A DNA stretch of 26,224 nt from a virus, in IMG/VR virus record IMGVR_UViG_3300029286_003708, positions 1 to 26,224 of that record; one strand, written 5' to 3'. Below are positions 862 through 19,296 of this stretch, piece by piece. Numbering within the stretch: position 1 is the first letter of the stretch; every line of letters begins with the position of its first letter. A program made the translations under genes and the position numbers. Below the pieces are notes generated by a model that worked only from the letters and a program-made list of their open reading frames with translations, was not told the origin of the DNA and made no database searches.

Positions 862-890
862 TTGGATTCAGCTTTTCGCTAAAATATGCT
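862..890 (+). promoter_or_regulatory. Weak sigma70-like promoter for the HNH gene
   Basis: TTGGAT (862..867) and TATGCT (885..890) are separated by exactly 17 nt, each matching 4 of 6 consensus positions. This would start RNA about 50 nt before the HNH ATG. It lies across the inverted repeat. The gene is on the opposite strand from everything else and so needs its own promoter, which is the main reason for listing this weak match. Confidence 0.25.
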
Positions 891-908
891 GGATATGTAG
901 CTGAATCC
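864..908. repeat. 10-bp perfect inverted repeat in the tail-fibre leader
   Basis: The arms GGATTCAGCT (864..873) and AGCTGAATCC (899..908) are perfectly complementary and separated by 25 nt. They lie in the 123-nt gap between the divergent starts of the tail-fibre gene (minus, 822) and the HNH gene (plus, 946). Neither side has an adjacent T-run, so this is not an ordinary terminator. It could be a leader hairpin for the fibre gene, an operator, or part of the target or edge of the HNH insertion. The rest of the gap is A/T-rich and shows nothing else I can identify. Confidence 0.6.
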
Positions 909-945
909 TACGTGTCCGGCATTTTTTAATTTGTAATAAAAACCT

Positions 946-1587
946 ATGGAATTTAAAAAATGTATCAAATGTGGAAAAATATTTTTTAAACCTGATTATG
1001 AGTGGATTGGAACATTTAATAATAGAAAATATTGTAGTCTTGCTTGTTGTCATAAAGATAAAAAAAGTGAGGACATTTCAGGAAAAAAATTTGGTAAATT
1101 AACTGCAATGAAATTTGTCAAAAGCGATAAAAATAATACTATTTATTGGCTTTTTAGATGTGATTGTGGGAATGAGAAAATCTGTAAAAAAGGTTCAGTA
1201 AAGGCGGGATATATAACCAGTTGTGGCTGTTTTCATTCTGAAAGAGTGATAGAAAGATTAACCACTCACGGGCAAACAAATACGGGGTTTTATCAACGTT
1301 TTATGGGAATTTTGCGTAGGTGCAATAATCAGAAGACTTGGAACTATAATCGTTATGGTGGTAGGGGTATAAAATGTCTATGGAGTGATTTCATAGAATT
1401 TAAGAGGGATATGTATGATAGTTTTCTAGAAGCTTGCCGGCTCTATGGAGAACGGTATATCAGTATAGACAGGATTGATAACGACGGAAATTATTGTAAA
1501 GCGAATTGCAGGTGGGTAACCGCCAAAATGCAGGCGGGTAATAGGAGAAAACGGCTAACATTCATCAAACGCAAACACAAACATTAA
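946..1587 (+). CDS. HNH-type homing endonuclease with N-terminal zinc-binding modules
   Basis: This 213-aa protein is the only convincing gene on the plus strand. It has a Cys pair (C6, C9) plus C30/C34. A second module, 'GKKFGKLT' followed by RCDCGN (about 72..76) and SCGC (92..95), is of a kind often seen before AP2 or HNH domains in phage homing nucleases. The C-terminal nuclease signature runs from YGGRGI (137..142) through 'SIDRIDNDGNYCKANCRW' (173..190) to NRR (199..201), a common phage HNH/homing pattern with D, N and C ligands in place. Such enzymes nick or cut DNA to spread their own gene. The orientation opposite to its neighbours fits a late insertion. There is no Shine-Dalgarno sequence. 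Family assignment is strong; target and activity are unknown. Confidence 0.85.
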   Translation: MEFKKCIKCGKIFFKPDYEWIGTFNNRKYCSLACCHKDKKSEDISGKKFGKLTAMKFVKSDKNNTIYWLFRCDCGNEKICKKGSVKAGYITSCGCFHSERVIERLTTHGQTNTGFYQRFMGILRRCNNQKTWNYNRYGGRGIKCLWSDFIEFKRDMYDSFLEACRLYGERYISIDRIDNDGNYCKANCRWVTAKMQAGNRRKRLTFIKRKHKH

Positions 1588-6161: not shown

Positions 6162-6884
6162 TTATTTATAACTCGGATAACTAACTGTAACCCTCTTATT
6201 TCCTTTGAACTGATTTTTGTAAAAATCATCAAACTTATTTTGCATACCCCCTTTTCCTACTAGGAATCTTTCATACTGAACTTTCTGATGCTTGTCGGCG
6301 TGCATAATATATTCCAACTCTGCCAAATCATAGGCCAGAATACCTTGTAGGTTTTCTTCTATCTCCGATGGTGCGGTGTCAGCTGTAAAATCGGCTTGTC
6401 TCTTTTCGTATTCGATATATATTCCATTTGTTATATTTCCTGATGTGTTTTTTACTGGCCTGATTCGGAAGGAATTACGAAAGAAATCAACCCTTGGGTT
6501 TTCGGTCGAAAAAATATCATCAATATCTTCATCTTTATATTCAGTCAGCACATTTTCAGCCTGGTCATAAACCCTAGCCTTTTTCCAAGTGATTCCATCA
6601 AAAGAAACTTCCAATCTTACTGGTCGGAGCAAATTGCTAGGGAAAGCGTATTCGCCATTGTATCCATTATTCCCCGAAGACAATCCGACTGTAGAAATAA
6701 GGTCGGTAGTCGCCTTTTGCATTGTGGCGTTTTTGTCCACTGCCAGTTTTATAATATCCAACACTCGAAGTCCATAAAGAGTATTCAGACGTTCCAAAAT
6801 TTTAGTAGCGTTGGCATCCAAAAAATTTCCAGAATTGGTGTTGGAAAGGATATATGCGTTTTCAATTATTTTTGAGCCTATCAT
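6162..6884 (-). CDS. Head-tail connector / adaptor-like protein (240 aa)
   Basis: The 240-aa protein has helices at its start ('ANATKILERLNTLYGLRVLDIIK'-like region, about residues 24 to 47), a middle domain with 'VRLEVSFDGITWKKARVYD', and a C-terminal helical part ('ILAYDLAELEYIMHADKHQ'). This architecture and length match phage proteins annotated as head-to-tail adaptors (gp4/gp6 type), which dock on the portal and close the packaged head. Its start overlaps the stop of the last glycosyltransferase as ATGA, so its translation is coupled to the glycan cassette. Assignment rests on gene order and a family-like look, without a diagnostic catalytic motif. Confidence 0.55.
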   Translation of the reverse strand: MIGSKIIENAYILSNTNSGNFLDANATKILERLNTLYGLRVLDIIKLAVDKNATMQKATTDLISTVGLSSGNNGYNGEYAFPSNLLRPVRLEVSFDGITWKKARVYDQAENVLTEYKDEDIDDIFSTENPRVDFFRNSFRIRPVKNTSGNITNGIYIEYEKRQADFTADTAPSEIEENLQGILAYDLAELEYIMHADKHQKVQYERFLVGKGGMQNKFDDFYKNQFKGNKRVTVSYPSYK

Positions 6885-7696
6885 AAGTAAGTCTTTATAA
6901 ATTTATTAACCGCCTTTTCCCAAGTGTAATCTTTAGGGTCAGCGTCTTCAGGAAAATTATTGCCCATATCGTGAGTATGGATTATGCACCCACTAGCCTT
7001 GGCTTCCAGTATTGGCAGACAAAATCCTTCTGATAGTGAATGTTTATAAAAATGCTTTGCTCGCTGATATATCTTTGGTATTTCTTCTATCGGTGGGTTG
7101 GTTATTGTTTCTATCCCAGGAATATTTTTTGTTTCCCTTCCCAACCAGACTATTCTTTTATGGCCATCTTTTTTTGCTTCATTTATGGAGTGCTGGACAT
7201 TCTTGTTAAATTCTGGTGTGCCTTCTACCAATGCGTCAATGTCCCTTTCCAGCCCGTGATTAACAAAAAATCTTTCGTGTATCCCATTAGGTATTATCGT
7301 TCCTTGTCGCTCTGTCCATCCCAAGGCATAGGAAGAAACAGCCATCATTTCCCAATTCTTCCTATGCCTGATTTCGATGCATTTTTGTTTTAAACTTCCA
7401 TCATAAAAATGTATATCTTTTCCTTGAATAAACTGCACTTTCCTTCCTTTGTAATTTTCCAGTTTAGGAACTTGCATCCACCAGTTTGCGACAATCAAAT
7501 CTTCATCTGTAAAATTAGCTAGTTCTTCAATCGGTTTGGGCGTAATATCGTAAAAATCCCTTAATCTGTTGTCTTTTGAATAATTGGCGTAAATATCGGC
7601 TTCATATCCCAACTTGCGTAGCCTTGAAACATATTCATAGTTGGTAATCAGGCCACCACATACTATTATTCCATCATTTACGAATGCGATTCGCAT
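6881..7696 (-). CDS. GT-B glycosyltransferase, family 4-like (271 aa)
   Basis: The N-terminal Rossmann-like half starts MRIAFVNDGIIVCGGLITNYEYV, with a Gly-rich acceptor-side loop. The C-terminal half holds 'SEGFCLPILEAKASG' with the E-x7-E pair E223 and E231, the nucleotide-sugar-binding motif of retaining GT4 enzymes. At 271 aa it is shorter than most GT4 enzymes (about 350 to 400 aa). The usual nucleotide-binding strand is present as 'HKRIVWLGRETKNIPG' at about residues 179 to 194. It would transfer a sugar from an activated nucleotide donor in the cytoplasm. It is the last member of the glycan cassette, overlapping the previous gene by 19 nt and the connector gene by ATGA. Donor and acceptor are unknown. 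Confidence 0.8.
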   Translation of the reverse strand: MRIAFVNDGIIVCGGLITNYEYVSRLRKLGYEADIYANYSKDNRLRDFYDITPKPIEELANFTDEDLIVANWWMQVPKLENYKGRKVQFIQGKDIHFYDGSLKQKCIEIRHRKNWEMMAVSSYALGWTERQGTIIPNGIHERFFVNHGLERDIDALVEGTPEFNKNVQHSINEAKKDGHKRIVWLGRETKNIPGIETITNPPIEEIPKIYQRAKHFYKHSLSEGFCLPILEAKASGCIIHTHDMGNNFPEDADPKDYTWEKAVNKFIKTYL

Positions 7697-9126
7697 ATTC
7701 TTTTTGCTTCCATTTCTCTTGTTAAATTAGGTTGTCTTGTAACCCTATATCTTTTGCGTAACTGCTCATATCCAGCCGTCATTTGGCTATCCAATAAATC
7801 AATCCTTGATTTACCGTGCTTTCTATATTTAAATAACGGTTCTCTTATATGTTTAAATTTAAATCCCTTATCATAAACTCTGTTCCAAAATCCCCAATCT
7901 TCAAAAATCTCACTGTTATCAAATCCACCAACTTGTTCAAAAACTCGTCTATCTATCAAGGCACAAGTGGAAGGTATGGGCTGGCATTCTTTCATTTTTT
8001 CAGTTTCTGGTTGCCCAACAACACCAACAGCATTTCCAATAAATTGCATATCTGTATAAACCACTTGAACATCTCCTTTCATTTCCTCCAGTGTTTTTTC
8101 AATGTAAGTTGGCTCTATTTCATCGTCAGCGTCTAGAAATAAAAGATAATCTCCCGTTGCATTGACTGACCCGGCATTTCTTACGTGGGCTACCCCACTG
8201 TTTTGTATATAAATTTTTTTAACATCATATTTTTCGATGACTTCTCTCGAATTGTCGTGGCTTCCATCATCAACAACGATAATTTCGTGGACAGGTGCGT
8301 ATTGGTTAAGAACCGATTGAATAGCTAGCCCGACAAATTGTGCGTATTGGAAATTGGGAATTATCACTGACACTTTTGGGAATAGAATTTGTGGAATTTC
8401 AAATGGTACTTCCACTGGTTGCAAATCATATAACCCACTAACCCACTGATTTTGCCTTGTCAAGGTGCCTATTTTCTGTTCGTTCCAATCTTTGTGATGG
8501 ATAGCGTTATATCTATGCCACTTCTGGTATTCATAGTTATATCCCCTAGTTCTAGCCAAATGATAAAATTTCACTGGTAGAATTGGCTGTAGTGGATTTT
8601 CAAAACTCTTATCTTGAGCATTATCGTATTCAAGAAATGGACGATAAGTATAAAAATCTTTCTTCACTTTGGTCATATCATTTGGCAACATTCCATCATA
8701 TCTATCGACCGCATCACGTCTATAAAGTCTATCTGGATAATGTTCAAAGTTAGCTTGTTCGTATCCATATCGCCAGCTTAACTGATGGTAACCAACCCTG
8801 AAACTCAATGTTTTTTTAGCTTTTCTTACTTCCTCAACAATCCTTTCGCAGGCTTCTTGGGGATACCATTCATCAGCGTCAATTTGCCAAATCCAATCTT
8901 GGGTCGCTTGGTCTAAACTAAACTGTCTTAATTCGCCTTGATTATCAGTTTCAGGATAACCAAATATTTTTATCTTGGGGTTGTTAAGGTTCTCTACTAT
9001 TTCCTTTGTCTTATCTTGTGAGGCATTATCTACAAAGATAATTTCTTCAACATAAGGCAATACTCTCGCTATGCACCCCTCGATAAATTGGGCTTCATTT
9101 TTGGCGACTATCAACGCACTAATCAT
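7678..9126 (-). CDS. Two-domain GT2 (GT-A) glycosyltransferase (482 aa)
   Basis: Two GT-A units are fused. Domain 1 (about 1 to 230) begins 'ISALIVAKNEAQFIEGCI', has 'IIFVDNASQDKT' for nucleotide binding and DADEW (83..87) as the metal-binding DxD. Domain 2 (about 251 to 482) begins 'VSVIIPNFQYAQFVGLAI', with 'IIVVDDGSHDNS', DADD at 332..335 and an EDWGFW catalytic-base motif near 409. Both sites look intact, so the protein could add two sugars in turn. Fused GT2 enzymes of this kind occur in glycan assembly clusters of bacteria and large phages. It sits 18 nt after the methyltransferase gene and overlaps the next GT by 19 nt. Function as a glycosyltransferase is very likely; sugars unknown. 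Confidence 0.9.
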   Translation of the reverse strand: MISALIVAKNEAQFIEGCIARVLPYVEEIIFVDNASQDKTKEIVENLNNPKIKIFGYPETDNQGELRQFSLDQATQDWIWQIDADEWYPQEACERIVEEVRKAKKTLSFRVGYHQLSWRYGYEQANFEHYPDRLYRRDAVDRYDGMLPNDMTKVKKDFYTYRPFLEYDNAQDKSFENPLQPILPVKFYHLARTRGYNYEYQKWHRYNAIHHKDWNEQKIGTLTRQNQWVSGLYDLQPVEVPFEIPQILFPKVSVIIPNFQYAQFVGLAIQSVLNQYAPVHEIIVVDDGSHDNSREVIEKYDVKKIYIQNSGVAHVRNAGSVNATGDYLLFLDADDEIEPTYIEKTLEEMKGDVQVVYTDMQFIGNAVGVVGQPETEKMKECQPIPSTCALIDRRVFEQVGGFDNSEIFEDWGFWNRVYDKGFKFKHIREPLFKYRKHGKSRIDLLDSQMTAGYEQLRKRYRVTRQPNLTREMEAKRICESHS

Positions 9127-9144
9127 TGTCTTAAAAATAAATTG

Positions 9145-9585
9145 TTACTTTGCCAGCCATACACACACTGTCTTGTGTCCACCTCGATTTCCTATTTCTT
9201 TCTTGACTAATTTAAATTCTGGATAGTTCATTTCTTTAGCTAATCTATTATCATAAAAATTCATAAAGGTGTTTTCAGTGAAATATCTTGTGTGTTCGAT
9301 ACATTCATAGGCCGCATCAGAATCTTTGTGGGGAACTTCGATATAAGCAACTCCACTAGGTTTTAGAACTCTCAATATTTCTTTCATCACGAAGATAAAA
9401 TCCTCATTCAGTTGGATATGTTCCATAACGTGTTCGCAGTTTATCTCATCGAATTGGTTGTCTTCGCAAGGTATTCCTTTTCTAATGTCGCAAACAATGT
9501 CTGGATTGAATGCAGGTAAAATATCTATCCCAATAACTCCATCCTGATGCTTGAATCCTTCGCCCACTCCGATTATTAGTTTCAT
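9145..9585 (-). CDS. Class I SAM-dependent methyltransferase (146 aa)
   Basis: The start is taken at 9585 (MKLIIGVGEG), because it forms an ATGA overlap with the upstream gene; a longer open frame from 9609 would only add eight residues inside that gene. Motif I is LIIGVGEG, an acidic residue follows in GIDI (about 18 to 21), then 'FDEINCEHVMEHI' and 'EILRVLKPSGVAYIEVP', the post-motif strand pattern of methyltransferase-11-type enzymes. It is short for the family (146 versus about 200 or more aa) but has the SAM-binding core. Placed inside the glycan cassette, it probably methylates a sugar or glycan end, an inference from context only. Confidence 0.8.
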   Translation of the reverse strand: MKLIIGVGEGFKHQDGVIGIDILPAFNPDIVCDIRKGIPCEDNQFDEINCEHVMEHIQLNEDFIFVMKEILRVLKPSGVAYIEVPHKDSDAAYECIEHTRYFTENTFMNFYDNRLAKEMNYPEFKLVKKEIGNRGGHKTVCVWLAK

Positions 9586-10439
9586 AATGTTTTCAAATAT
9601 TCTTCCCACTTATGAGTGTATAAATGCTCCCTCAATATTCTCGCTTTTGATTTTTCCATATAGGGTATTCGTTCATCAGGATTGGCAGAAAAATAATCAA
9701 TCATCCATTTGAAATGCTCCTTGTCTTTAGCATAAGGCACTTCATCTTCAGAAAAAAATTCTTTGACTATTGGCGTATTGTCCGAAATGGCGAATCCTCC
9801 AGCCAGTATGGTGTTGAAAATCCTGTCATTTATCATCTCTCCTGGAATGCCCTGAAACTCCGTTACTATGTTTTTTTGAAAATCTCCGTGAAGATTAGGA
9901 CAAGCTATGGCTGAACGATAATAGTTTTTGGCCTGTTCGTGTGGGCAAGCAATCCTTGTTACTTCGGAATAATCTAGCCAATCTTTTTTTCGTTCTGAAT
10001 GGTCAGTGCCTATAAACAAAACTCTTGGTGCTTCAATATTTTCTCCATTAAGATTGCATAGGCATCCATTATGGGGTAGATAGTGTATCTTCTTTCCAAG
10101 TTGCTGTTCCGCCCACTGGACACATTCGCCTTTCCATTGCGTTATATAATAATCCGCATTGATTGTCTGAATATCAGGCATAAGAAACTTACTATCTGGC
10201 TTAAAATGACCCAACCAACATATCTTCTTTGCTTTTGTATTTTTTAAATGTGCTATAGCTCTTGTCCACTCGCTTTGGAATATCACGAAATCTGCATCTT
10301 CTGGTATAACTTGGTATAGGCTCAAAAGTCCAGTCTGATGTCCTAATTCCTCCAATGCGTGCAAATGATGGTCTATAACCAATGAACCGCCATTATTATC
10401 TTTTAAATCTCTATTGATTACTATTCCGTAAAACTTCAT
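9582..10439 (-). CDS. CgeB-like GT-B glycosyltransferase (285 aa)
   Basis: The N-terminus (MKFYGIVINRDLKDNNGG) and the middle strand 'APRVLFIGTDHSERKKDW' fit a GT-B fold. The C-terminal region 'YYRSAIACPNLHGDF', 'EMINDRIFNTILAGGFAISD' and 'EHFKWMIDYFSANPDER' matches the glycosyltransferase 1_2 / CgeB pattern, in which R-F-E/N-lAGG is a hallmark. Such enzymes decorate spores and cell surfaces in bacteria and occur in many phages. It is joined by ATGA overlaps to both neighbours (the dehydratase upstream and the methyltransferase downstream). Donor and acceptor are unknown. Confidence 0.8.
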   Translation of the reverse strand: MKFYGIVINRDLKDNNGGSLVIDHHLHALEELGHQTGLLSLYQVIPEDADFVIFQSEWTRAIAHLKNTKAKKICWLGHFKPDSKFLMPDIQTINADYYITQWKGECVQWAEQQLGKKIHYLPHNGCLCNLNGENIEAPRVLFIGTDHSERKKDWLDYSEVTRIACPHEQAKNYYRSAIACPNLHGDFQKNIVTEFQGIPGEMINDRIFNTILAGGFAISDNTPIVKEFFSEDEVPYAKDKEHFKWMIDYFSANPDERIPYMEKSKARILREHLYTHKWEEYLKTL

Positions 10440-11248
10440 ATCAGCTCTTTTATTTCTTCTATTGAAAATTGTTCTACTTGATTGGAAAATACTTTACCAT
10501 CCATTGTTTCGTGCATATTCTCCCCTCCTCTATTGCCAATAACTTCCATTTCCACCCTGCCATATTTTTGCATCATCGCTTCCATCAAATCGCCCATCCG
10601 CATCGCTTTCATTTCCGGAACATAAGGCTTGGCATCCTTGGCGTTTTCAATGCAATCAAATATCAAATCCACTGCTTGTTCACGTGTCCAGAAGAACCTA
10701 GTCATATTCGGTTCGGTTATCATAACCTTTTCGCCCTTCAACATCTTTTCTTTCCACTTGCATAAAACCGAGCCGGTTGAGTAAAGAACGTTTCCATATC
10801 TGACCACTCGATATTTAGTCTTTGGGTTGCAATAGGCCATCTGCTCCATCAACTTTTCGCCTAGAAACTTTGTCGCTCCATACACTCCTGAAACTTGTGC
10901 CGCCTTGTCGGTAGAAATCATCACAAACGATTTCGGGATATTTATAAAACTTTCTGCAAGCAAATTTATAGTCCCATTGATATTTGTCTGAATTGCCTCA
11001 TAAGGCTGTCTTTCGGCTATATCAACGTGCTTGATTGCCGCTAGATGATAAACTTCCATAATCCCAATCATCGCCTGTTTCGCCACCCATTTATCAGCAA
11101 TATCGCCAGTCAAAATTTCAATATGAGGGAACTTCTGCTTCAATGACACTAGCTTTCCTTCATTCCTTGCGACAACTCTTATTTCTCCTTTTAACCTTGG
11201 GATAAGGGCTTCCGCTAGAAAACCCGTTCCACCTGTAATCAGTTTCAT
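10436..11248 (-). CDS. PseB/CapD-type NDP-sugar 4,6-dehydratase (SDR, 270 aa)
   Basis: This is an extended short-chain dehydrogenase: NAD(P)-binding TGGTGFLAEAL (residues 5 to 15, with the third Gly of the classic motif replaced by Ala), catalytic STDKA at 112..116, and Y123-x3-K127 (YGATK). The C-terminal blocks 'MTRFFWTREQAVDLI', 'YVPEMKAMRMGDLMEAM' and 'IGNRGGENMHETM' closely follow UDP-GlcNAc 4,6-dehydratase (5-inverting) PseB and its relatives FnlA and CapE. Length is about 50 aa below the usual 330. Expected product: a 4-keto-6-deoxy UDP-sugar, precursor of fucosamine- or pseudaminic-type sugars. No aminotransferase or epimerase partner is encoded nearby, so the host or an off-window gene must complete the sugar. 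ATGA overlaps both sides. Confidence 0.85.
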   Translation of the reverse strand: MKLITGGTGFLAEALIPRLKGEIRVVARNEGKLVSLKQKFPHIEILTGDIADKWVAKQAMIGIMEVYHLAAIKHVDIAERQPYEAIQTNINGTINLLAESFINIPKSFVMISTDKAAQVSGVYGATKFLGEKLMEQMAYCNPKTKYRVVRYGNVLYSTGSVLCKWKEKMLKGEKVMITEPNMTRFFWTREQAVDLIFDCIENAKDAKPYVPEMKAMRMGDLMEAMMQKYGRVEMEVIGNRGGENMHETMDGKVFSNQVEQFSIEEIKELI

Positions 11249-12237
11249 AGGGTTTTATAGAATAATTGCCACTTCATATCTCTATTCACATCGTATTTTT
11301 CCAACACCTCTTTCAATGCATTCTTGTGCAGTTCTTTCCTTAATGCTGGATTTTCAATCAGGTTAGATAGGTGCTTTATCCATAAGCCAGGAGTATCAGC
11401 CAATAATCCAGTCTTTCCGTGAATTATGGAATGCTCATATGGATAAACTTTAGAAGCCACCACACACGCACCAGCCAACGTTGATTCAAACCACTTGATG
11501 TTCGACTTGCATTTGTTGAAATCGTTATCAGCCAGTGGGCAAATGGAAATGTCTATACCGGCTTCAGTGAACACCCTTGGATATTCGTAAAATGGAACTC
11601 CCTTGATATTAATTGTCGGAAACTTGAACATATCGTGTTCTTTCCCAAAAATGACAATTTCAATATCATCCTTGTATTCTTCGTAAATCTTTTCCAAGGC
11701 AGTAGAAACTACAGGAATATCGGGAAAATGAGTTGGCGACCATACCCAGCCAATCCTTAATTTTTTGTGCTTCTTGCGTTTATGATTCCATTCATTAGGG
11801 TCAATGAGATTCGGGAGAACAACAATGTTCTGATTCAGTGGAAGTAATGCCTGTTTCAATGGTTCAGTCGCAACAGTTACCCAATCAGCACATTCTACCA
11901 ATCCAGTATTAACAGCCACGAATGTATCCCAACCTTCAGCTTGCCTGACAATATTTCCAACAGGAACTTGCCAGATATTATCGTCAATATCCATCACTAA
12001 CTTTGCATCAATGGCCTTTCGCATAGACACAAGCACATTAGCAGTGTGAGGGTCTTTCAGATACTTGATATTCCAAATCGGGGCTATCTTTTTGAACCTT
12101 TTGGCCAATTCTCCAATTTGGATTTTTTCGTTCTTTCTCAATAGAGTTTTCCTAAACACTGCAAAGTTTTTCAATGGACGGGTCATTCGATAATTCCAAA
12201 CTGCTGATTCTTTCGGTCTGATACAAAGGATTTTCAT
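11245..12237 (-). CDS. GT-B glycosyltransferase, GT1/GT4-like (330 aa)
   Basis: The protein starts MKILCIRPKESAVWNYRMTRP. Residues 80 to 90 (LVMDIDDNIW) are typical of phage-type glycosyltransferases that recognise an ordered acceptor. 'NIVVLPNLIDPNEW' and 'LRIGWVWSPTHFPDI' mark the inter-domain hinge and the start of the donor-binding half; 'NIKWFESTLAGACVVAS' is the donor-sugar site. This fits a retaining GT-B enzyme of about the usual length. It is the first enzyme of the cassette, overlapping the 107-aa unknown gene (ATGA) and the dehydratase (ATGA). Sugar specificity cannot be read from the sequence. Confidence 0.8.
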   Translation of the reverse strand: MKILCIRPKESAVWNYRMTRPLKNFAVFRKTLLRKNEKIQIGELAKRFKKIAPIWNIKYLKDPHTANVLVSMRKAIDAKLVMDIDDNIWQVPVGNIVRQAEGWDTFVAVNTGLVECADWVTVATEPLKQALLPLNQNIVVLPNLIDPNEWNHKRKKHKKLRIGWVWSPTHFPDIPVVSTALEKIYEEYKDDIEIVIFGKEHDMFKFPTINIKGVPFYEYPRVFTEAGIDISICPLADNDFNKCKSNIKWFESTLAGACVVASKVYPYEHSIIHGKTGLLADTPGLWIKHLSNLIENPALRKELHKNALKEVLEKYDVNRDMKWQLFYKTL

Positions 12238-14215: not shown

Positions 14216-14512
14216 CTAAAGTAAATCGTTCAGCATCTTTTGAAGTTGCTTCTTGGCCATAATCGCTTGAACAACCAAATCAGCCACTTCTTCTTTCTTG
14301 CCCAAATCTATTCCCAACTTTTCTATGCGGCTCAAACTATCGAGTTCCATCAGGTATTTTTGGATTATTTCTTCAACAACATACTTTTGGAATGCCTGAT
14401 TGTCTTTCAATGATTCCAAAAACATTAACCTAACCTTATTTATCTTCTCTTTGGCTTTGGTCTCCTTTTTCTCTTGAGCGTGTTTTTTCTTGTCGTATTT
14501 TACTTGTTTCAT
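14216..14512 (-). CDS. Small helical protein between portal and scaffold (98 aa)
   Basis: This 98-aa protein is almost entirely predicted helix by composition. The N-terminus is very basic (MKQVKYDKKKHAQEKKETKA) and the rest amphipathic ('LFLESL'-like and 'EEIIQKYLMELDSLSRIEKL' segments). Its ATG overlaps the portal stop (ATGA), so it is made with portal. Genes in this slot in other phages include portal-associated or head-completion helpers, but no specific family is recognised here. The basic start could bind DNA or the acidic scaffold; this is inference. Confidence 0.6.
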   Translation of the reverse strand: MKQVKYDKKKHAQEKKETKAKEKINKVRLMFLESLKDNQAFQKYVVEEIIQKYLMELDSLSRIEKLGIDLGKKEEVADLVVQAIMAKKQLQKMLNDLL

Positions 14513-16335
14513 ATCGCTGGGATTGGAGCATTCATTGCTTGAGCATCGTTTTGCGTCTTCAACATCTGTTGCATCATATTTTGTCTCATTGCCTCTGCTT
14601 CCATCGCTTTCTGTTCAGGCGTTTTATCGTATTGCCTTGGGTTTTCATTCAACAGGTCAAGGATAGTATCTTCAACAGCTTCCTTGTTTTTTGTAGAGTT
14701 CGGGTCATTCTTGATTCCGACTAGGGTTTCAACCTTGGACTTCTTATCAAACGATTCATTGGTTACATAGAACTCGATGAATGAATCAACACCCTTTAGC
14801 ATTTCTTTCTTCAGGTCAGGGAATCGCATATCATCCATCTTGGCCAGTTGAGCCATCACTTGTTCACGCACTTGTCCATATTTTTCTTCAGTTGGGTACA
14901 TTCCAGTTGCTTCTTTCATATCGGAAGCCCACTTGTTCATCGCATTATCAACAAGGAAATTGTCCACCTCGACTAATTGTCGTGGGTCTCCGATGATAGC
15001 GTTAAATTCTTGCTCATCCAGTTCATTCAAAATATCCTCGAAGTATCCATTCTGAAACAGCCCCACAATAAAGTGGTGCATTCGTTCACGAACAAAGTCA
15101 TAGGTAGTCTGTTGCGTTTGAGCATTGATAGACGCTTGGGTAGCAGAAGTAGAAGCTGGCATTTCTTCGCCAGTTCCTTGGGCGGTAACTCCTAATGTCA
15201 ATCGCATCAATTCGTATAGCTTGTCAACGTTGGCGATATATTCGGCCGTCTTGGTATCAACAACAAGTCTTTGGAAATCCTCATCTTGTGCCAAACTGAT
15301 AACGGCGTGGGTATCCAAATTGCTGATGTATTCTTGGGTCAATGAATTGGATTTTTCCCCAGCCTTATGAACGAATATTCCTTTCAAATCAAGAATATCC
15401 TTTTTGCGTTTGTTGTTGGTGTATTCGTTATAGTGTTCTGAAAGTCCGGACAATAGTTCAGCACATCCGAAAGCCAACCATCGGCCAGGTGCATCAAAGA
15501 AGTCGGCTTGTTCATATGGGTACATTTCTTCAACATCGCCTAACTTTATGGACATTCTCTTTGACTGCCTCTTGCGTTTGTATGGAGTTTTGAACCTATC
15601 CAACTCAACTTTAGGTTGCCAATCATTAGGCTTCTCGTTCTTTTTCCAATCAACTATTTCGTTATCCAAATACTTTATGCACACTTTGTGGACATCGGTT
15701 AATTTCTCCTCCAAAGTATCTTGTGTCCACCATTCAAATATTCTGAATTTTGTTTCTCCTTCTTCTTGCATCTTCTTCCAAAGGGCTTCAATATCTTCCC
15801 AAGCACCTTTCCAATCATCTTTATAAGACTGCATCTTTTCCCAAGAGTAATAACAGGCTTCGGCGTGGTCTCTCTCTTGTGGGTCTTTGATTGTGGCGTT
15901 AGTGGTGTAGTTTCTTAAATCAACTGTTTCGACCTTGCCATCAACACGCTTGGTCATAGAACTTCCAAACCAACACACATCGCCCAATACTTTATCAACG
16001 TATTTACCAAAAAAAGTCCTACCCAAGTGGGTATGGACTGCCATTTTAAATAAAGATAATACTCTTATTCCTCGTCCGTTCAAACTTCGGATGTTTAAAT
16101 CTTTCAGGTCAATATCAGAAGCCATTATGATAGTCCGATAAATAACCCATATCATCCGATAAAATATTCTTGTGAATCCACTGTCTTCTGTTTCTCCATT
16201 CTCAAACTTGGCGTTGTAAAGTCTATATGATTCCTCGATTACATCACGAAGATTATATGAAACGCCACCTCCAACCTCGATGGTCATATCTTCGTTGTTC
16301 TCTAGGAAAGTTTGAAAGTCTTTTGGTGTTTTCAT
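14509..16335 (-). CDS. Portal protein (608 aa)
   Basis: At 608 aa directly behind the large terminase gene (ATGA overlap), size and order identify the portal, the dodecameric ring through which DNA enters and leaves the head. Helix-rich and Trp/Tyr-containing wing and stem segments are seen, including 'GRWLAFGCAELLSGLSEHYN' (about 285 to 304), a phrase typical of portal stem helices, and a long polar C-terminus ('KAMEAEAMRQNMMQQM') like a barrel extension. No enzymatic motif. Its length is nearer that of short-tailed phage portals than the roughly 400 to 500 aa of lambda/HK97 types. Position makes the call firm even though the family is divergent. Confidence 0.85.
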   Translation of the reverse strand: MKTPKDFQTFLENNEDMTIEVGGGVSYNLRDVIEESYRLYNAKFENGETEDSGFTRIFYRMIWVIYRTIIMASDIDLKDLNIRSLNGRGIRVLSLFKMAVHTHLGRTFFGKYVDKVLGDVCWFGSSMTKRVDGKVETVDLRNYTTNATIKDPQERDHAEACYYSWEKMQSYKDDWKGAWEDIEALWKKMQEEGETKFRIFEWWTQDTLEEKLTDVHKVCIKYLDNEIVDWKKNEKPNDWQPKVELDRFKTPYKRKRQSKRMSIKLGDVEEMYPYEQADFFDAPGRWLAFGCAELLSGLSEHYNEYTNNKRKKDILDLKGIFVHKAGEKSNSLTQEYISNLDTHAVISLAQDEDFQRLVVDTKTAEYIANVDKLYELMRLTLGVTAQGTGEEMPASTSATQASINAQTQQTTYDFVRERMHHFIVGLFQNGYFEDILNELDEQEFNAIIGDPRQLVEVDNFLVDNAMNKWASDMKEATGMYPTEEKYGQVREQVMAQLAKMDDMRFPDLKKEMLKGVDSFIEFYVTNESFDKKSKVETLVGIKNDPNSTKNKEAVEDTILDLLNENPRQYDKTPEQKAMEAEAMRQNMMQQMLKTQNDAQAMNAPIPAI

Positions 16336-17666
16336 CTAAATGATGTTAATTTTGCTTGTTGTATTGGTTTCGCTACTGGTATTGGCGTTTCTTCAGGAGT
16401 AGTTGCCCAACCTCGAAGCATATCAGCACAATGGCTTGACCAATCGTGCTTCGGACTTTTTCGGAAGACTTTATTTTCTTCGTCATAGTCCTTATGGTAA
16501 TTTTTTAATGCTTTCAATGCTCTGTCGCATCTTGTTTTATCTATATAAAGCGTTTGTAGTCTGCCTCTTACCGCTTGGATTCCATCTTCAATCGGTAGCA
16601 TCGGAACGGCTGATTTGAGTGTTCCATCTTTTTTCTTGATGGTTTCAAATGTTATTCCTAAATCCTTGGCGGTTTCCAACCTCGACCTACCAGTTCCTAA
16701 TTCTCGAACAACTATATCGTGAGGTGCGTAATGTTTACCAAAAATATAATTCTTCTTTCCGAGTTCTTGAATATAATATGTTAATCCTTCTCCACTTTCT
16801 TCCAGGTAATCAAAGAATCTCCATTGCAATCCGTGCTTCTGAAAAAATCCTACTGATGTTGAATCATCTATTCCCAAGTCCCACCAGGTATGAACCAATA
16901 AATTTGGGTCATATGGAACATCGGTAATCTTTCCATCCTTTTCCATCTGCTCAACAATCTTTCCATAGAAACTTCCAACCAACGCCGCTGAAAAACTGTT
17001 GTAGTATTCCTGCTGGAATATTCCATCATCTCCGTTCTTGGCTATAATCTCTTTTCTTTCCTGCTCCAACACTTCCGTCTTAATCGCTCCTGTATCATCG
17101 ACAGTCAGGTTTGAAACAAACCAATGTTCAGGGTCAGTCAGTGCGTAATCCAGTAATTCCTTGGCGTGATTTTCGCCTCTTGGCGTGAAATTGAATATCG
17201 CCCATCCTTCGTTCTCCGCTAGAATTGGTCTAATATAGTCCCAAGCTCTAGGGTCTTGCAATGAATATTCTGAAAATATAACCCCTCTTGGATTTGTTCC
17301 AACTATCGTATCAATGTTGTCCGAACCGACTACTTGAAACGTGCTACCGTTTTTAAATTCAATGAACATTTCATTCCCAACTGTTCTCAATCTTGTTTCC
17401 TTTGGCAGATGGTCAAGAAATCTCATTCCTTGCTTATCTGCTCCATTCCACAAAATCTTTTTTCCTTGGTTGTATGTTGGGAATATATAAAAATATGCTC
17501 CTACTGTCTCATAAACTTCTCTAGCGATTATGTTAATGTCTGTCTTTTCCTTTCCTGCTCGTCTATGCCAAACTTGAATTATCCTTTTATACCCTTCATC
17601 AATCTTGTCGAAAATTACCTGTTGGTAAGTTCTGGCTTCGTATTTATGGGGTATCGTTATTTCCAT
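16332..17666 (-). CDS. terL: Terminase large subunit (444 aa)
   Basis: The packaging ATPase/nuclease. The Walker A variant is WHRRAGKEKT (33..42), the 'RRAGK' type. Walker B with its catalytic acid is GVIFSEY (128..134, E133), and a coupling motif follows at 'WAIFNFTPRG' (155..164). The C-terminal RNase H-like nuclease has the first Asp in HTWWDLGIDDS (D263), acidic residues near 286 to 290, and a final DWSSHCADMLRG (D408, D415). All key residues are present, so it should be active. It overlaps the small subunit by 23 nt and portal by ATGA. It would cut concatemers and pump DNA into the procapsid. Length is usual for the family. Confidence 0.93.
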   Translation of the reverse strand: MEITIPHKYEARTYQQVIFDKIDEGYKRIIQVWHRRAGKEKTDINIIAREVYETVGAYFYIFPTYNQGKKILWNGADKQGMRFLDHLPKETRLRTVGNEMFIEFKNGSTFQVVGSDNIDTIVGTNPRGVIFSEYSLQDPRAWDYIRPILAENEGWAIFNFTPRGENHAKELLDYALTDPEHWFVSNLTVDDTGAIKTEVLEQERKEIIAKNGDDGIFQQEYYNSFSAALVGSFYGKIVEQMEKDGKITDVPYDPNLLVHTWWDLGIDDSTSVGFFQKHGLQWRFFDYLEESGEGLTYYIQELGKKNYIFGKHYAPHDIVVRELGTGRSRLETAKDLGITFETIKKKDGTLKSAVPMLPIEDGIQAVRGRLQTLYIDKTRCDRALKALKNYHKDYDEENKVFRKSPKHDWSSHCADMLRGWATTPEETPIPVAKPIQQAKLTSFR

Positions 17667-18204
17667 TTTTGCGAATTACATTAACTATCAATGGATTTTC
17701 TTTATCTCCTGTGAGTTGAGTTTGGTTCTGGTCTTTCCAGTTGTAATTATTCTTTAGGTTAAAAATCACTCCTGCTACATTATTTCCAAACAAGCATTCT
17801 TCGGCGTGATTCTCGCATTTTTGCTTGGCCTTTTTTAGGGTGTTACTAAATTCGTCTTTTTCTTCATACTCGCACAATACTTTTCTACTTGTGTCAAGAG
17901 CTAAAGCTAGTCCTGTAACAGTAAATGGTTTTATCTGAACCTTCTTCTTTACTGGCTTTTTTTTAAATTTACCTGTTGTATCGAATGTCCTATTTCCATC
18001 CTCATCCCTATCATCTTCATCAAACCATTTATCTTCAAAGCAACTATCAAAGTACTCGTCTATCTTTTTTTGTAATTCTTCGACTGTTTTGAATTTGAGT
18101 GGCCTTCCGACATTACTTTCATTTTCTTCAGGCAATTTTGAATCTTCAGTTGGTGTAACTGGCTCTTGGTTAGTATTTGTTTCTTGGGAAGTTTCATTTT
18201 CCAC
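17644..18204 (-). CDS. terS: Terminase small subunit (186 aa)
   Basis: The start is a GTG (18204..18202) overlapping the stop of the 87-aa gene (TAGTG). An acidic, disordered N-terminus (to about residue 30) is followed by 'NVGRPLKFKTVEELQKKI', then 'PFTVTGLALALDTSRKVLCE' as the helix-turn-helix-like DNA-recognition region (about 112 to 131), and 'NNVAGVIFNLKNNYNWKD' as the conserved C-terminal block seen in phage small terminases. It would bind the packaging start site and recruit the large subunit. The HNH gene upstream fits the common HNH-terminase neighbourhood. Family call is strong, recognition site unknown. Confidence 0.88.
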   Translation of the reverse strand: MENETSQETNTNQEPVTPTEDSKLPEENESNVGRPLKFKTVEELQKKIDEYFDSCFEDKWFDEDDRDEDGNRTFDTTGKFKKKPVKKKVQIKPFTVTGLALALDTSRKVLCEYEEKDEFSNTLKKAKQKCENHAEECLFGNNVAGVIFNLKNNYNWKDQNQTQLTGDKENPLIVNVIRKNGNNDTP

Positions 18205-18467
18205 TATTTTTTGAAATGCTTTAACTGTATCTTTTTAATAGGGAATGGTTCTTTGGCCTTCTTGCACTTCTTGATGAAATCCCTTTCCTTATAATTTGGT
18301 CTGCCTATTTTTAAAACTATTTCGATACTATTGTTCCTTTTATCAATTTTGCCTTTATAAACCCTTCTTGTGGCGGTTATGACTGATTTTTCGCTTAAAT
18401 ACTTGGTGGCCTGTCTAGCCTCCGTGTTTATGAGTAGTTCGACTGTTTTTCCAATGTCGTTTTTCAT
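18204..18467 (-). CDS. Small basic protein upstream of terminase (87 aa)
   Basis: The 87-aa protein is basic, with 'SVITATRRVYKGKIDKRNNS' in the middle and a Lys-rich end (PIKKIQLKHFKK). It has no Cys motif. It begins MKNDIGKTVELLINTE at an ATG that overlaps the stop of the 66-aa gene (ATGA) and has the best Shine-Dalgarno sequence in the window. Its basic charge and place next to the small terminase suggest a nucleic-acid-binding helper for packaging, but I recognise no family. Confidence 0.6.
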   Translation of the reverse strand: MKNDIGKTVELLINTEARQATKYLSEKSVITATRRVYKGKIDKRNNSIEIVLKIGRPNYKERDFIKKCKKAKEPFPIKKIQLKHFKK

Positions 18468-18664
18468 AATTCCACCTCCTTTTCCAAAAATACCCTTCTT
18501 TTAACTTCTCCTTTTTCTATGCGTCTGATTGCTTTTGCTATTTCCTCGACCTCAAACTTCATTTCGTGCCATAAATATCTTTCTTCCTCTGAATTGAATG
18601 GAAGAAGTAGCCGCATTGCCTTTTCTTTTTCCCTCATTCTGGATTCTAATTGCGTTTTGTTCAT
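18464..18664 (-). CDS. First late-operon gene, small helical protein (66 aa)
   Basis: A 66-aa Glu/Lys/Arg-rich, probably all-helical protein (MNKTQLESRMREKEKAMRLL, then 'EEERYLWHEMKFEVEEIAKA'). It is the first open frame after the promoter/terminator region, and its ATG (18664..18662) lies at the 3' edge of a highly self-complementary leader. There is no Shine-Dalgarno before it, unlike the next gene, so it may be expressed weakly or serve mainly to couple translation into the 87-aa gene. A different frame over the same bases (from a TTG at 18743) is open but has no support. No family recognised. Confidence 0.55.
   Translation of the reverse strand: MNKTQLESRMREKEKAMRLLLPFNSEEERYLWHEMKFEVEEIAKAIRRIEKGEVKRRVFLEKEVEL
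18473..18481 (-). promoter_or_regulatory. Strong Shine-Dalgarno AAGGAGGTG
   Basis: AAGGAGGTG on the minus strand, with GGAGG 7 nt before the ATG of the 87-aa gene. It is also codons of the 66-aa gene. It stands out because nearly all other starts in this window lack a recognisable Shine-Dalgarno sequence, so it sets this gene apart in translation strength. Confidence 0.7.
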
Positions 18665-18753
18665 CAGGCGGATTTGAATAGATACGAGTGGAAAAAATAT
18701 CGCATATAGCGTATCCGCCTTTCGCTAGTTGGGTTGCATTCAACTACGCCTGA
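18662..18753 (-). promoter_or_regulatory. Structured leader with mutually exclusive stems before the late genes
   Basis: Four complementary pairs lie in 92 nt: TCAGGCG (18664..18670) with CGCCTGA (18747..18753); AGGCGGAT (18666..18673) with ATCCGCCT (18713..18720); GATACG (18681..18686) with CGTATC (18710..18715); and TAGTTG (18726..18731) with CAACTA (18741..18746). The first two compete for the same CGCCT next to the ATG of the 66-aa gene, and the third shares bases with the second, so the RNA can take alternative folds. It lies directly behind the terminator. It may control translation or terminator readthrough; a ligand is not indicated. Confidence 0.55.
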
Positions 18754-18790
18754 AAAACAAAAAAGACACCAAACATTTAAGTTGGCGTCT
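18753..18790 (-). terminator. Intrinsic terminator between early and late genes, with a competing hairpin
   Basis: On the minus strand the arms AGACGCCAA (18790..18782) and TTGGTGTCT (18772..18764) form a 9-bp stem with one G-U pair and a 9-nt loop, followed at once by TTTTTGTTTTT. Upstream, GTCTC (18805..18801) can pair with GAGAC (18791..18787), which uses the first bases of the terminator arm and so would act as an antiterminator. It lies downstream of the 52-aa gene and before the packaging genes, where it would end early transcripts and short RNAs from the local promoter. Confidence 0.8.
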
Positions 18791-18820
18791 CGTACGGTTT
18801 GAGACTATTTGATTACTTTA

Positions 18821-18849
18821 AGTCTAGCATACTTTTAGTTTTCTGTCAA
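18821..18849 (-). promoter_or_regulatory. Late promoter, sigma70 type with extended -10
   Basis: Minus-strand TTGACA (18849..18844) and TAGACT (18826..18821) are separated by exactly 17 nt, with TG one base before the -10. The -35 is a perfect consensus; the -10 matches 4 of 6, compensated by the TGn extension. The expected RNA start is near 18814. It overlaps the last codons of the 52-aa gene. It is the best promoter match I found in the window and lies at the early/late junction, about 25 nt upstream of the terminator hairpin. Confidence 0.75.
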
Positions 18850-18993
18850 ATTTACCTCCGTAACCACATCGCAATTTTTACAAATCAACCCATCCTTAAC
18901 ATAAACAACTAATTTGCCTTTAAACCCTGACTCTTTTAATTGCATAATCGTCTCAAGTATTTTATCTAATTCTTTATCTTGTGGGTCTATCAT
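18835..18993 (-). CDS. 52-aa protein, last early gene, overlaps the late promoter
   Basis: I translated ATG (18993..18991) to TAA (18837..18835): 52 aa starting MIDPQDKELDKILETIMQLK, with a helical first half and a strand-rich second half ending 'LVVYVKDGLICKNCDVVTEV'. A CKNC pair at residues 38 to 41 could bind metal if it dimerises or pairs with another protein. Its ATG overlaps the stop of the 59-aa gene (ATGA). The position, immediately upstream of a promoter-plus-terminator leading to the late genes, is that of the Q antiterminator gene in lambdoid phages, but no sequence similarity to Q is visible. Confidence 0.6.
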   Translation of the reverse strand: MIDPQDKELDKILETIMQLKESGFKGKLVVYVKDGLICKNCDVVTEVNLTEN

Positions 18994-19169
18994 ATTTGTA
19001 TTTTTATATCACTCTTTTTCATTATTACCGCCATTTTTAATTTCCTTATGCAAGCCGTATGATATGGCTTTGGCTTCTCCAAATCATCAGCAATAATGTA
19101 AAATTTGATTACGCCATTGGATTTGCCACACCATCGACACTTCTCTTTTTTTGGTCTTTGCATACACAT
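18990..19169 (-). CDS. 59-aa zinc-finger-like protein upstream of the late switch
   Basis: ATG (19169..19167) to TGA (18992..18990) gives 59 aa starting MCMQRPKKEKCRWCGKSNG. Cys11-x2-Cys14 and His37-x2-Cys40 (HTAC) make a plausible single zinc site, and the ends are basic (IRKLKMAVIMKKSDIKIQI). This looks like a small nucleic-acid- or polymerase-binding protein. The ATG at codon 3 is an alternative start. It is coupled to the 52-aa gene by ATGA and follows the HNH gene by 127 nt. No family is recognised. Confidence 0.6.
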   Translation of the reverse strand: MCMQRPKKEKCRWCGKSNGVIKFYIIADDLEKPKPYHTACIRKLKMAVIMKKSDIKIQI

Positions 19170-19296
19170 ATTATTTCTTTAAAGGGAAATTGAAAGGATA
19201 AACACGCTTCGTTTGAGAACCTTCAGCAATGGTGCAGTTCTCCTTCAAATAAACTAGGCCTCTCCATAGCCCGCCCCACTTTAAGAGCGTTTCCTT

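What the first reader, a model, noticed from the sequence alone, without database searches (positions are those of the whole stretch)
18753..18849. Compact promoter-terminator unit at the early/late boundary, like lambda pR'/tR'
A near-consensus promoter (TTGACA, 17 nt, TGC-TAGACT) is followed by an intrinsic terminator (9-bp stem, TTTTTGTTTTT) about 30 to 60 nt downstream, in front of terminase, portal, capsid and tail genes. In lambda and P22 the late promoter makes a short terminated RNA until an antiterminator allows readthrough. Here the whole unit is under 100 bp, much shorter than lambda's 194-nt RNA, and a GTCTC/GAGAC hairpin competes with the terminator, so it could also be an attenuator. 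It would also stop early transcripts entering from upstream.
Basis: partly seen in the sequence, partly recalled or inferred. Interest (0 to 1): 0.75.

Follow-up and report, generated by a model that had tools for sequence, protein, structure and literature searches.

The report
Phage late promoter with early terminator
A strong bacterial-type start signal in front of this phage's packaging and shell genes is followed at once by a stop signal, so the late genes probably stay off until something lets the polymerase read through, a switch laid out almost exactly like that of the classical phage P22.

Summary
On the minus strand, TTGACA (18849-18844), 17 nt and TG-C-TAGACT (18826-18821) form by far the best sigma70-type site in the 26-kb window. 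An intrinsic terminator follows: a bulged 9-bp stem at 18789-18765, then T6GT5. The unit sits between the replication genes and the packaging/capsid genes, and no comparable promoter lies between it and the terminase. A weaker hairpin (GTCTC/GAGAC) really competes with the terminator stem, with p about 0.013 after shuffling. In related phages the best promoter of the locus also tends to lie just upstream of the terminase (12 of 31 loci, 4.4 expected), but none of the 11 related leaders tested has a terminator there. The late promoter is therefore shared and the terminator gate is private to this phage. The small size is not unusual: annotated P22 pR'-tR' spans 94 bp and makes an RNA of about 59 nt, against 97 bp and about 57 nt here. 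No Q-type antiterminator was found, but the contig is a fragment. Best reading: a late promoter gated by promoter-proximal termination, working like lambda/P22 pR'-tR'; membership in the Q-dependent family is not shown. A plausible new example of a known kind.

The parts
18844..18849 (-). -35 hexamer TTGACA, inside the last codons of ORF 18835-18993
18821..18829 (-). extended -10: TG-C-TAGACT, 17-nt spacer
18813..18816 (-). predicted transcription start (A18814 most likely)
   Evidence: inferred from distance to the -10; not measured
18787..18805 (-). competing (antiterminator-like) hairpin GTCTC-9 nt-GAGAC, -5.6 kcal/mol; shares GAGAC with the terminator stem
   Evidence: preferred until base 18765/18764 is exposed; 1.3% of shuffles as good
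18765..18789 (-). intrinsic terminator stem-loop, 9 bp with one bulged U, extended to 11 bp with the U-tract
18753..18764 (-). T-tract TTTTTTGTTTTT; predicted 3' ends about 18760-18755
   Evidence: position inferred
18665..18752 (-). read-through leader: CAGGCG/CGCCTG or AGGCGGAT/ATCCGCCT pairings enclosing the leader ORF
   Evidence: z -4.5 for 18650-18815; z -2.3 for 18660-18760
18664..18705 (-). possible 13-codon leader ORF MRYFFHSYLFKSA with Shine-Dalgarno-like AAGGCGG (18721-18715); its stop overlaps the ATG of the next gene (TGATG)
   Evidence: translation not shown
18464..18664 (-). first gene behind the unit, 66 aa, predicted long helical hairpin, family unknown
   Evidence: pLDDT 92
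18204..18467 (-). 87-aa gene; distant relatives lie next to virion or packaging genes in other phages
17644..18204 (-). terminase small subunit (GP3_package, phrog_606)
16332..17666 (-). terminase large subunit
18835..18993 (-). last small gene of the upstream (early-type) gene array, 52 aa, no family
18990..19169 (-). 59-aa gene with Cys/His pairs (CRWC, HTAC), no family; only a speculative regulator candidate

Best explanation
This is the phage's late promoter carrying a promoter-proximal intrinsic terminator. Host RNA polymerase with its main sigma factor starts near 18814 and mostly stops near 18757, giving an RNA of about 57 nt. Early transcripts arriving from the replication genes stop at the same place. 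Later, polymerase that has been made termination-resistant reads on through the leader into the two small genes, terS, terL, portal and capsid. Shown from sequence: the promoter match, the terminator, the competing hairpin, the gene order, the lack of another good promoter behind it, and the shared position of the best promoter in related phages. Inferred: that both elements work, that read-through is regulated, and that the regulator is an unidentified phage or host antitermination factor, possibly helped by the GTCTC/GAGAC hairpin.
For: Promoter 13.25 against 8.86 for the next minus-strand site, none in 40 shuffles, and at most 7.5 between the terminator and terL. Terminator score 23.7. Early-type genes upstream (Erf/ERF, YqaJ/RecE exonuclease, DnaD-like loader, methyltransferase) and packaging/capsid genes downstream. 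In 12 of 31 terminase loci, this window included, the best promoter lies 300-1600 nt upstream of terL (4.4 expected, P = 0.0006); the three related groups with terL 73-79% identical that show it (L004, L006, L009) all have 17-nt spacing and TG. The geometry matches annotated P22 pR'/tR' (94 bp, RNA about 59 nt). A terminator beginning 54 nt behind an antiterminator-loaded promoter is documented for AlpA (PMC7969949).
Against: No terminator follows the promoter in the 11 related leaders tested. No Q, RinA or other known antiterminator in the window, although the contig is incomplete and the PF06323 and RinA searches had no positive control. No loading site for such a factor could be recognised. 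There are no transcript data, the host is unknown, and the promoter matrix is an approximate E. coli one.
Confidence: 0.5

Rival explanations
1. Passive boundary: the terminator ends early transcripts and only reduces output of the late promoter; late genes are made by ordinary incomplete termination, rising with gene copy number, with no dedicated antiterminator.
For: Terminator placed about 70 nt behind the last early-type gene; bulged stem of moderate strength (-12.8) against -18.6 for P22 tR'; no antiterminator found; relatives manage without the terminator.
Against: A terminator needed only to end early transcripts would be better placed upstream of the late promoter, as in L010 where terminator-like DNA precedes a promoter-like site just before terS.
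Confidence: 0.22
2. RNA-switch attenuator: GTCTC/GAGAC is an antiterminator hairpin that forms first; a protein bound to it, or slow transcription, keeps it and lets polymerase pass. No polymerase-bound antiterminator is needed.
For: Competing hairpin better than 98.7% of shuffles; with the upper terminator stem it stays the preferred fold (-9.8) until base 18765/18764 is exposed, when the full stem wins (-11.9, then -13.4). In P22 the 5' hairpin does not overlap the terminator.
Against: The full terminator is more stable at the end; only about 25 nt precede it, too short for an aptamer; no translated leader in that stretch; p = 0.013 is a single post-hoc test and no relative has the sequence.
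Confidence: 0.13
3. Small RNA gene: the 57-nt terminated RNA is the product, acting on phage or host mRNAs; late genes are transcribed otherwise.
For: Strong promoter plus strong terminator is the form of a small RNA gene; Gifsy-1 IsrK is a phage small RNA whose promoter also reads through its terminator (PMC4825925).
Against: No pairing to translation starts of window genes or to the read-through leader beyond chance; no other good promoter for the late genes; relatives keep the promoter without the terminator.
Confidence: 0.1
4. The inverted repeats mark a packaging (cos/pac) site upstream of terS, and the promoter/terminator resemblance is secondary.
For: Packaging sites often lie near terS (background knowledge); several inverted repeats occur between 18805 and 18665.
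Against: The promoter is far beyond chance and the T-tract is placed as in a terminator; no contig end or known cos/pac motif was seen here.
Confidence: 0.04

Closest known systems
P22 pR'/tR' (late promoter, NC_002371 37852-37945)
   Same: Single late promoter with 17-nt spacer at the early/late boundary; terminator starts about 24-30 nt after the start site; unit 94 bp against 97 bp; RNA about 59 nt against about 57 nt.
   Different: P22 has its antiterminator gene (23, Q-like) directly upstream, none is recognised here; P22's 5' hairpin does not compete with tR'; P22 late genes begin with lysis genes, here with two small genes and the terminase.
lambda pR'/tR' and Q antitermination
   Same: Late promoter followed by an intrinsic terminator in front of all late genes.
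AlpA-alpB promoter of Pseudomonas aeruginosa
   Same: Intrinsic terminator tB beginning 54 nt behind the start site, bypassed by a promoter-loaded antiterminator (PMC7969949).
   Different: A bacterial lysis programme; no AlpA-like protein found here.
Gifsy-1 isrK locus
   Same: Promoter, short terminated RNA, read-through into a small ORF and further genes (PMC4825925).
   Different: AntQ lies upstream there; the short RNA acts in trans on its own read-through mRNA, for which no pairing evidence exists here.
Xp10 P7 antitermination
   Same: A small phage protein lets host polymerase bypass intrinsic terminators that precede late genes (PMC6624301).
   Different: No P7 relative was looked for beyond the family libraries; none found.

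Membership tests
Lambdoid Q-dependent pR'/tR' late switch | Sigma70-type promoter at the early/late boundary | tested here: met
   gene content
Lambdoid Q-dependent pR'/tR' late switch | Intrinsic terminator between the promoter and the first late gene | tested here: met
   function in cells not tested
Lambdoid Q-dependent pR'/tR' late switch | Q-type antiterminator gene, usually directly upstream | tested here: inconclusive
   No PF06530, PF06323 or PF03589 match in the window (the PF06323 search had no positive control); the contig is a fragment and unknown families exist
Lambdoid Q-dependent pR'/tR' late switch | Q binding element between -35 and -10 and a -10-like pause element behind the start | tested here: inconclusive
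   Read by eye: AAAACT/AAAAGT near-repeat in the spacer and TAGTCT at +8; both expected by chance in AT-rich DNA
Lambdoid Q-dependent pR'/tR' late switch | Factor-dependent read-through late in infection | not testable with these tools
   Needs transcript mapping or reporter assays
RinA/ArpU-type activated late promoter upstream of terS | RinA-family activator gene | tested here: inconclusive
   TIGR01636 no match, but the control search rang nowhere; PHROGs/Pfam/NCBIfam scans of the upstream genes show none
RNA-switch attenuator | Mutually exclusive terminator and antiterminator hairpins | tested here: met
   fold prediction only
RNA-switch attenuator | Ligand-, protein- or ribosome-dependent choice between the two | not testable with these tools
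   No Rfam match; upstream leader only about 25 nt

The most novel reading that the evidence does not exclude
In this group of phages the late promoter is constant but the control element behind it is swapped: a minimal terminator with an overlapping antiterminator hairpin here, large structured RNAs directly behind the promoter in relatives (for example L004, fold z -5.6). The antitermination would then be done by RNA elements or by an unknown small phage protein, not by a Q protein.
Probability: 0.12. Interest if true: 0.6.

Novelty: new member of a known kind. Interest (0 to 1): 0.35.

Why it matters
It would show that the lambda/P22 way of holding back late genes, a terminator placed directly behind the late promoter, also occurs in uncultivated phages far from the lambdoid group, without a recognisable Q gene. 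It gives an exact, small (97 bp) and testable unit, and a set of relatives that keep the promoter but lack the terminator, which makes the gain or loss of such gates open to comparison.

Tried and rejected
DNA similarity search of 1.1 kb around the unit in phage records: nothing. Rfam on the window and on eight related loci: nothing. Exact terminator-stem pattern in viral contigs: seven hits, not followed up. Relatives by portal or small terminase: none found. Host by prophage search: only one 41% terL match, in a Chromatiales MAG, so the host stays unknown. Search for a shared promoter-spacer motif: only the two near-identical contigs it was derived from. Small-RNA target pairing: no better than shuffles. 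Folding the 59-aa Cys/His protein: low confidence (pLDDT 57); the 66-aa protein folds as a helical hairpin; neither was pursued. NinG-like similarity of the HNH gene (E 0.009) would fit a lambda-like gene order but is below cut-off and was not used. The strict terminator scan misses P22 tR', so relatives were re-scanned with a looser one that finds P22 tR' (false-positive rate 0.04 per 300 nt) but still not lambda tR'.

Full report
What is there. The minus strand reads TTGACA (18849-18844), 17 nt, TG-C-TAGACT (18826-18821), a predicted start near A18814, GTCTC AAACCGTAC GAGAC (18805-18787), then GACGCCAAC TTAAAT G(U)TTGGTGTC (18789-18765) and TTTTTTGTTTTT (18764-18753). With an approximate sigma70 weight matrix the promoter scores 13.25; the next best minus-strand site of the window scores 8.86, the best plus-strand site 9.92, and none in 40 dinucleotide shuffles reaches it. 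It is the only minus-strand site with 10 of 12 consensus bases, whereas shuffles give about six, so the coding strand seems depleted of chance promoters. The terminator folds at -12.8 kcal/mol with a d'Aubenton-type score of 23.7. The generic scan missed it, presumably because of the bulged U.

Is it more than chance? Under a strict definition no promoter-terminator unit occurs in 823 kb (both strands) of DNA around related terminase genes, and none in 113 shuffles of the window strand. That definition is strict enough to miss P22 tR' and, in one version, to score the window's own terminator poorly, so the promoter rank is the firmer number.

Where it lies. Upstream are ERF recombinase, YqaJ/RecE exonuclease, a DnaD-like helicase loader, a methyltransferase, an HNH gene and small genes; downstream come two small genes, terS, terL, the gene at 14509-16335 (probably portal) and the major capsid protein. 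All but one of the main genes are on the minus strand. Behind the terminator no site scores above 7.5 before terL. Late genes must therefore be reached by reading through 18757, or from a promoter type not modelled here.

Relatives. Terminase loci were collected from viral contigs. In 12 of 31 non-redundant loci, this window included, the best promoter of the held DNA lies 300-1600 nt upstream of terL, against 4.4 expected (P = 0.0006). The three related groups with terL 73-79% identical that show it (L004, L006, L009) all have a 17-nt spacer and an extended -10, and L009 has a perfect 12/12 match. The fourth group with enough upstream DNA (L010) does not; there a terminator-like hairpin precedes a promoter-like site just before terS. 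A looser terminator scan that recovers P22 tR' and the window's terminator finds none within 300 nt of the promoter in 11 relatives, with 0.04 false hits per shuffled 300 nt; it does not recover lambda tR', so its sensitivity is limited. So the late promoter is a trait of the group and the terminator is not. L004 has a large stable fold directly behind its promoter (-41 kcal/mol, z -5.6); L009 a weaker one (z -2.3). Neither matches Rfam.

The competing hairpin. Step-wise folding of the growing RNA shows GTCTC/GAGAC forming first (-5.6), coexisting with the upper terminator stem (-9.8), and being displaced only when base 18764 is exposed (-11.9, then -13.4). Only 1.3% of shuffles of the 5' part compete as well. 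Without help the terminator wins. Something holding the first hairpin would give read-through. This is a prediction from energies, tested once and after the fact.

Behind the terminator. The first gene, 18464-18664, has no Shine-Dalgarno sequence of its own. A 13-codon ORF (18705-18664, MRYFFHSYLFKSA) with AAGGCGG in front of it ends in TGATG, overlapping that gene's ATG, which suggests translational coupling. AAGGCGG is largely buried in a hairpin with ATCCGCCT in the leader. Expression of these is not shown.

Comparison. P22 as annotated has pR' at 37852-37880, its start at 37887 and tR' at 37917-37945: 94 bp and an RNA of about 59 nt, nearly the same as here. AlpA works with a terminator 54 nt behind the start (PMC7969949). 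Q proteins need a binding element in the promoter spacer and a pause element (PMC6606751); neither can be recognised here beyond chance, and no Q family protein is in the window. Because the contig is a linear fragment whose first gene runs off the end (record described), the antiterminator may simply be missing from it.

Verdict. Promoter real: about 0.85. Terminator real: about 0.85. Regulated gate on late genes: about 0.5. These three are judgements, not computed values. It works like pR'/tR' on paper; it cannot be filed as a Q-dependent late switch.

Noticed in passing
L004 2402-2520 (+): A relative's late promoter is followed directly by a large three-way-junction-like RNA (-41 kcal/mol, z -5.6), no Rfam match; L009 has a long structured non-coding leader too.
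   Followed up: partly
L006 and L009 leaders upstream of terS: Both late leaders carry AACTTTGAAAA, which resembles a boxA of ribosomal RNA leaders, and a shared TTTTACTAACGG.
   Followed up: no
window 18664-18705 (-): Thirteen-codon ORF with AAGGCGG in front, its stop overlapping the next gene's ATG, inside a hairpin: possible leader peptide with translational coupling.
   Followed up: partly
window 19170-19296 (-): Non-coding gap behind the HNH gene whose ends TTGAAAGG/CCTTTCAA close a multibranched fold (-34 kcal/mol, but z only -1.7); no Rfam match.
   Followed up: partly
window 16008-16040 (-): Strong terminator-like hairpin plus T7 inside the coding sequence of the 14509-16335 (portal-like) gene, on the transcribed strand (score 25); antiterminated polymerase would ignore it.
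   Followed up: no
window 886-1587 (+): The only sizeable plus-strand gene (213 aa, no Pfam match) lies next to a strong plus-strand terminator-like hairpin (886-937); looks like an inserted element.
   Followed up: no
window 6881-12237 (-): Block of glycosyltransferases, a polysaccharide-synthesis epimerase and a methyltransferase between the capsid and tail genes.
   Followed up: no
window 18204-18467 (-): Small gene whose relatives (48-57%) lie next to virion or packaging genes in otherwise different phages.
   Followed up: partly
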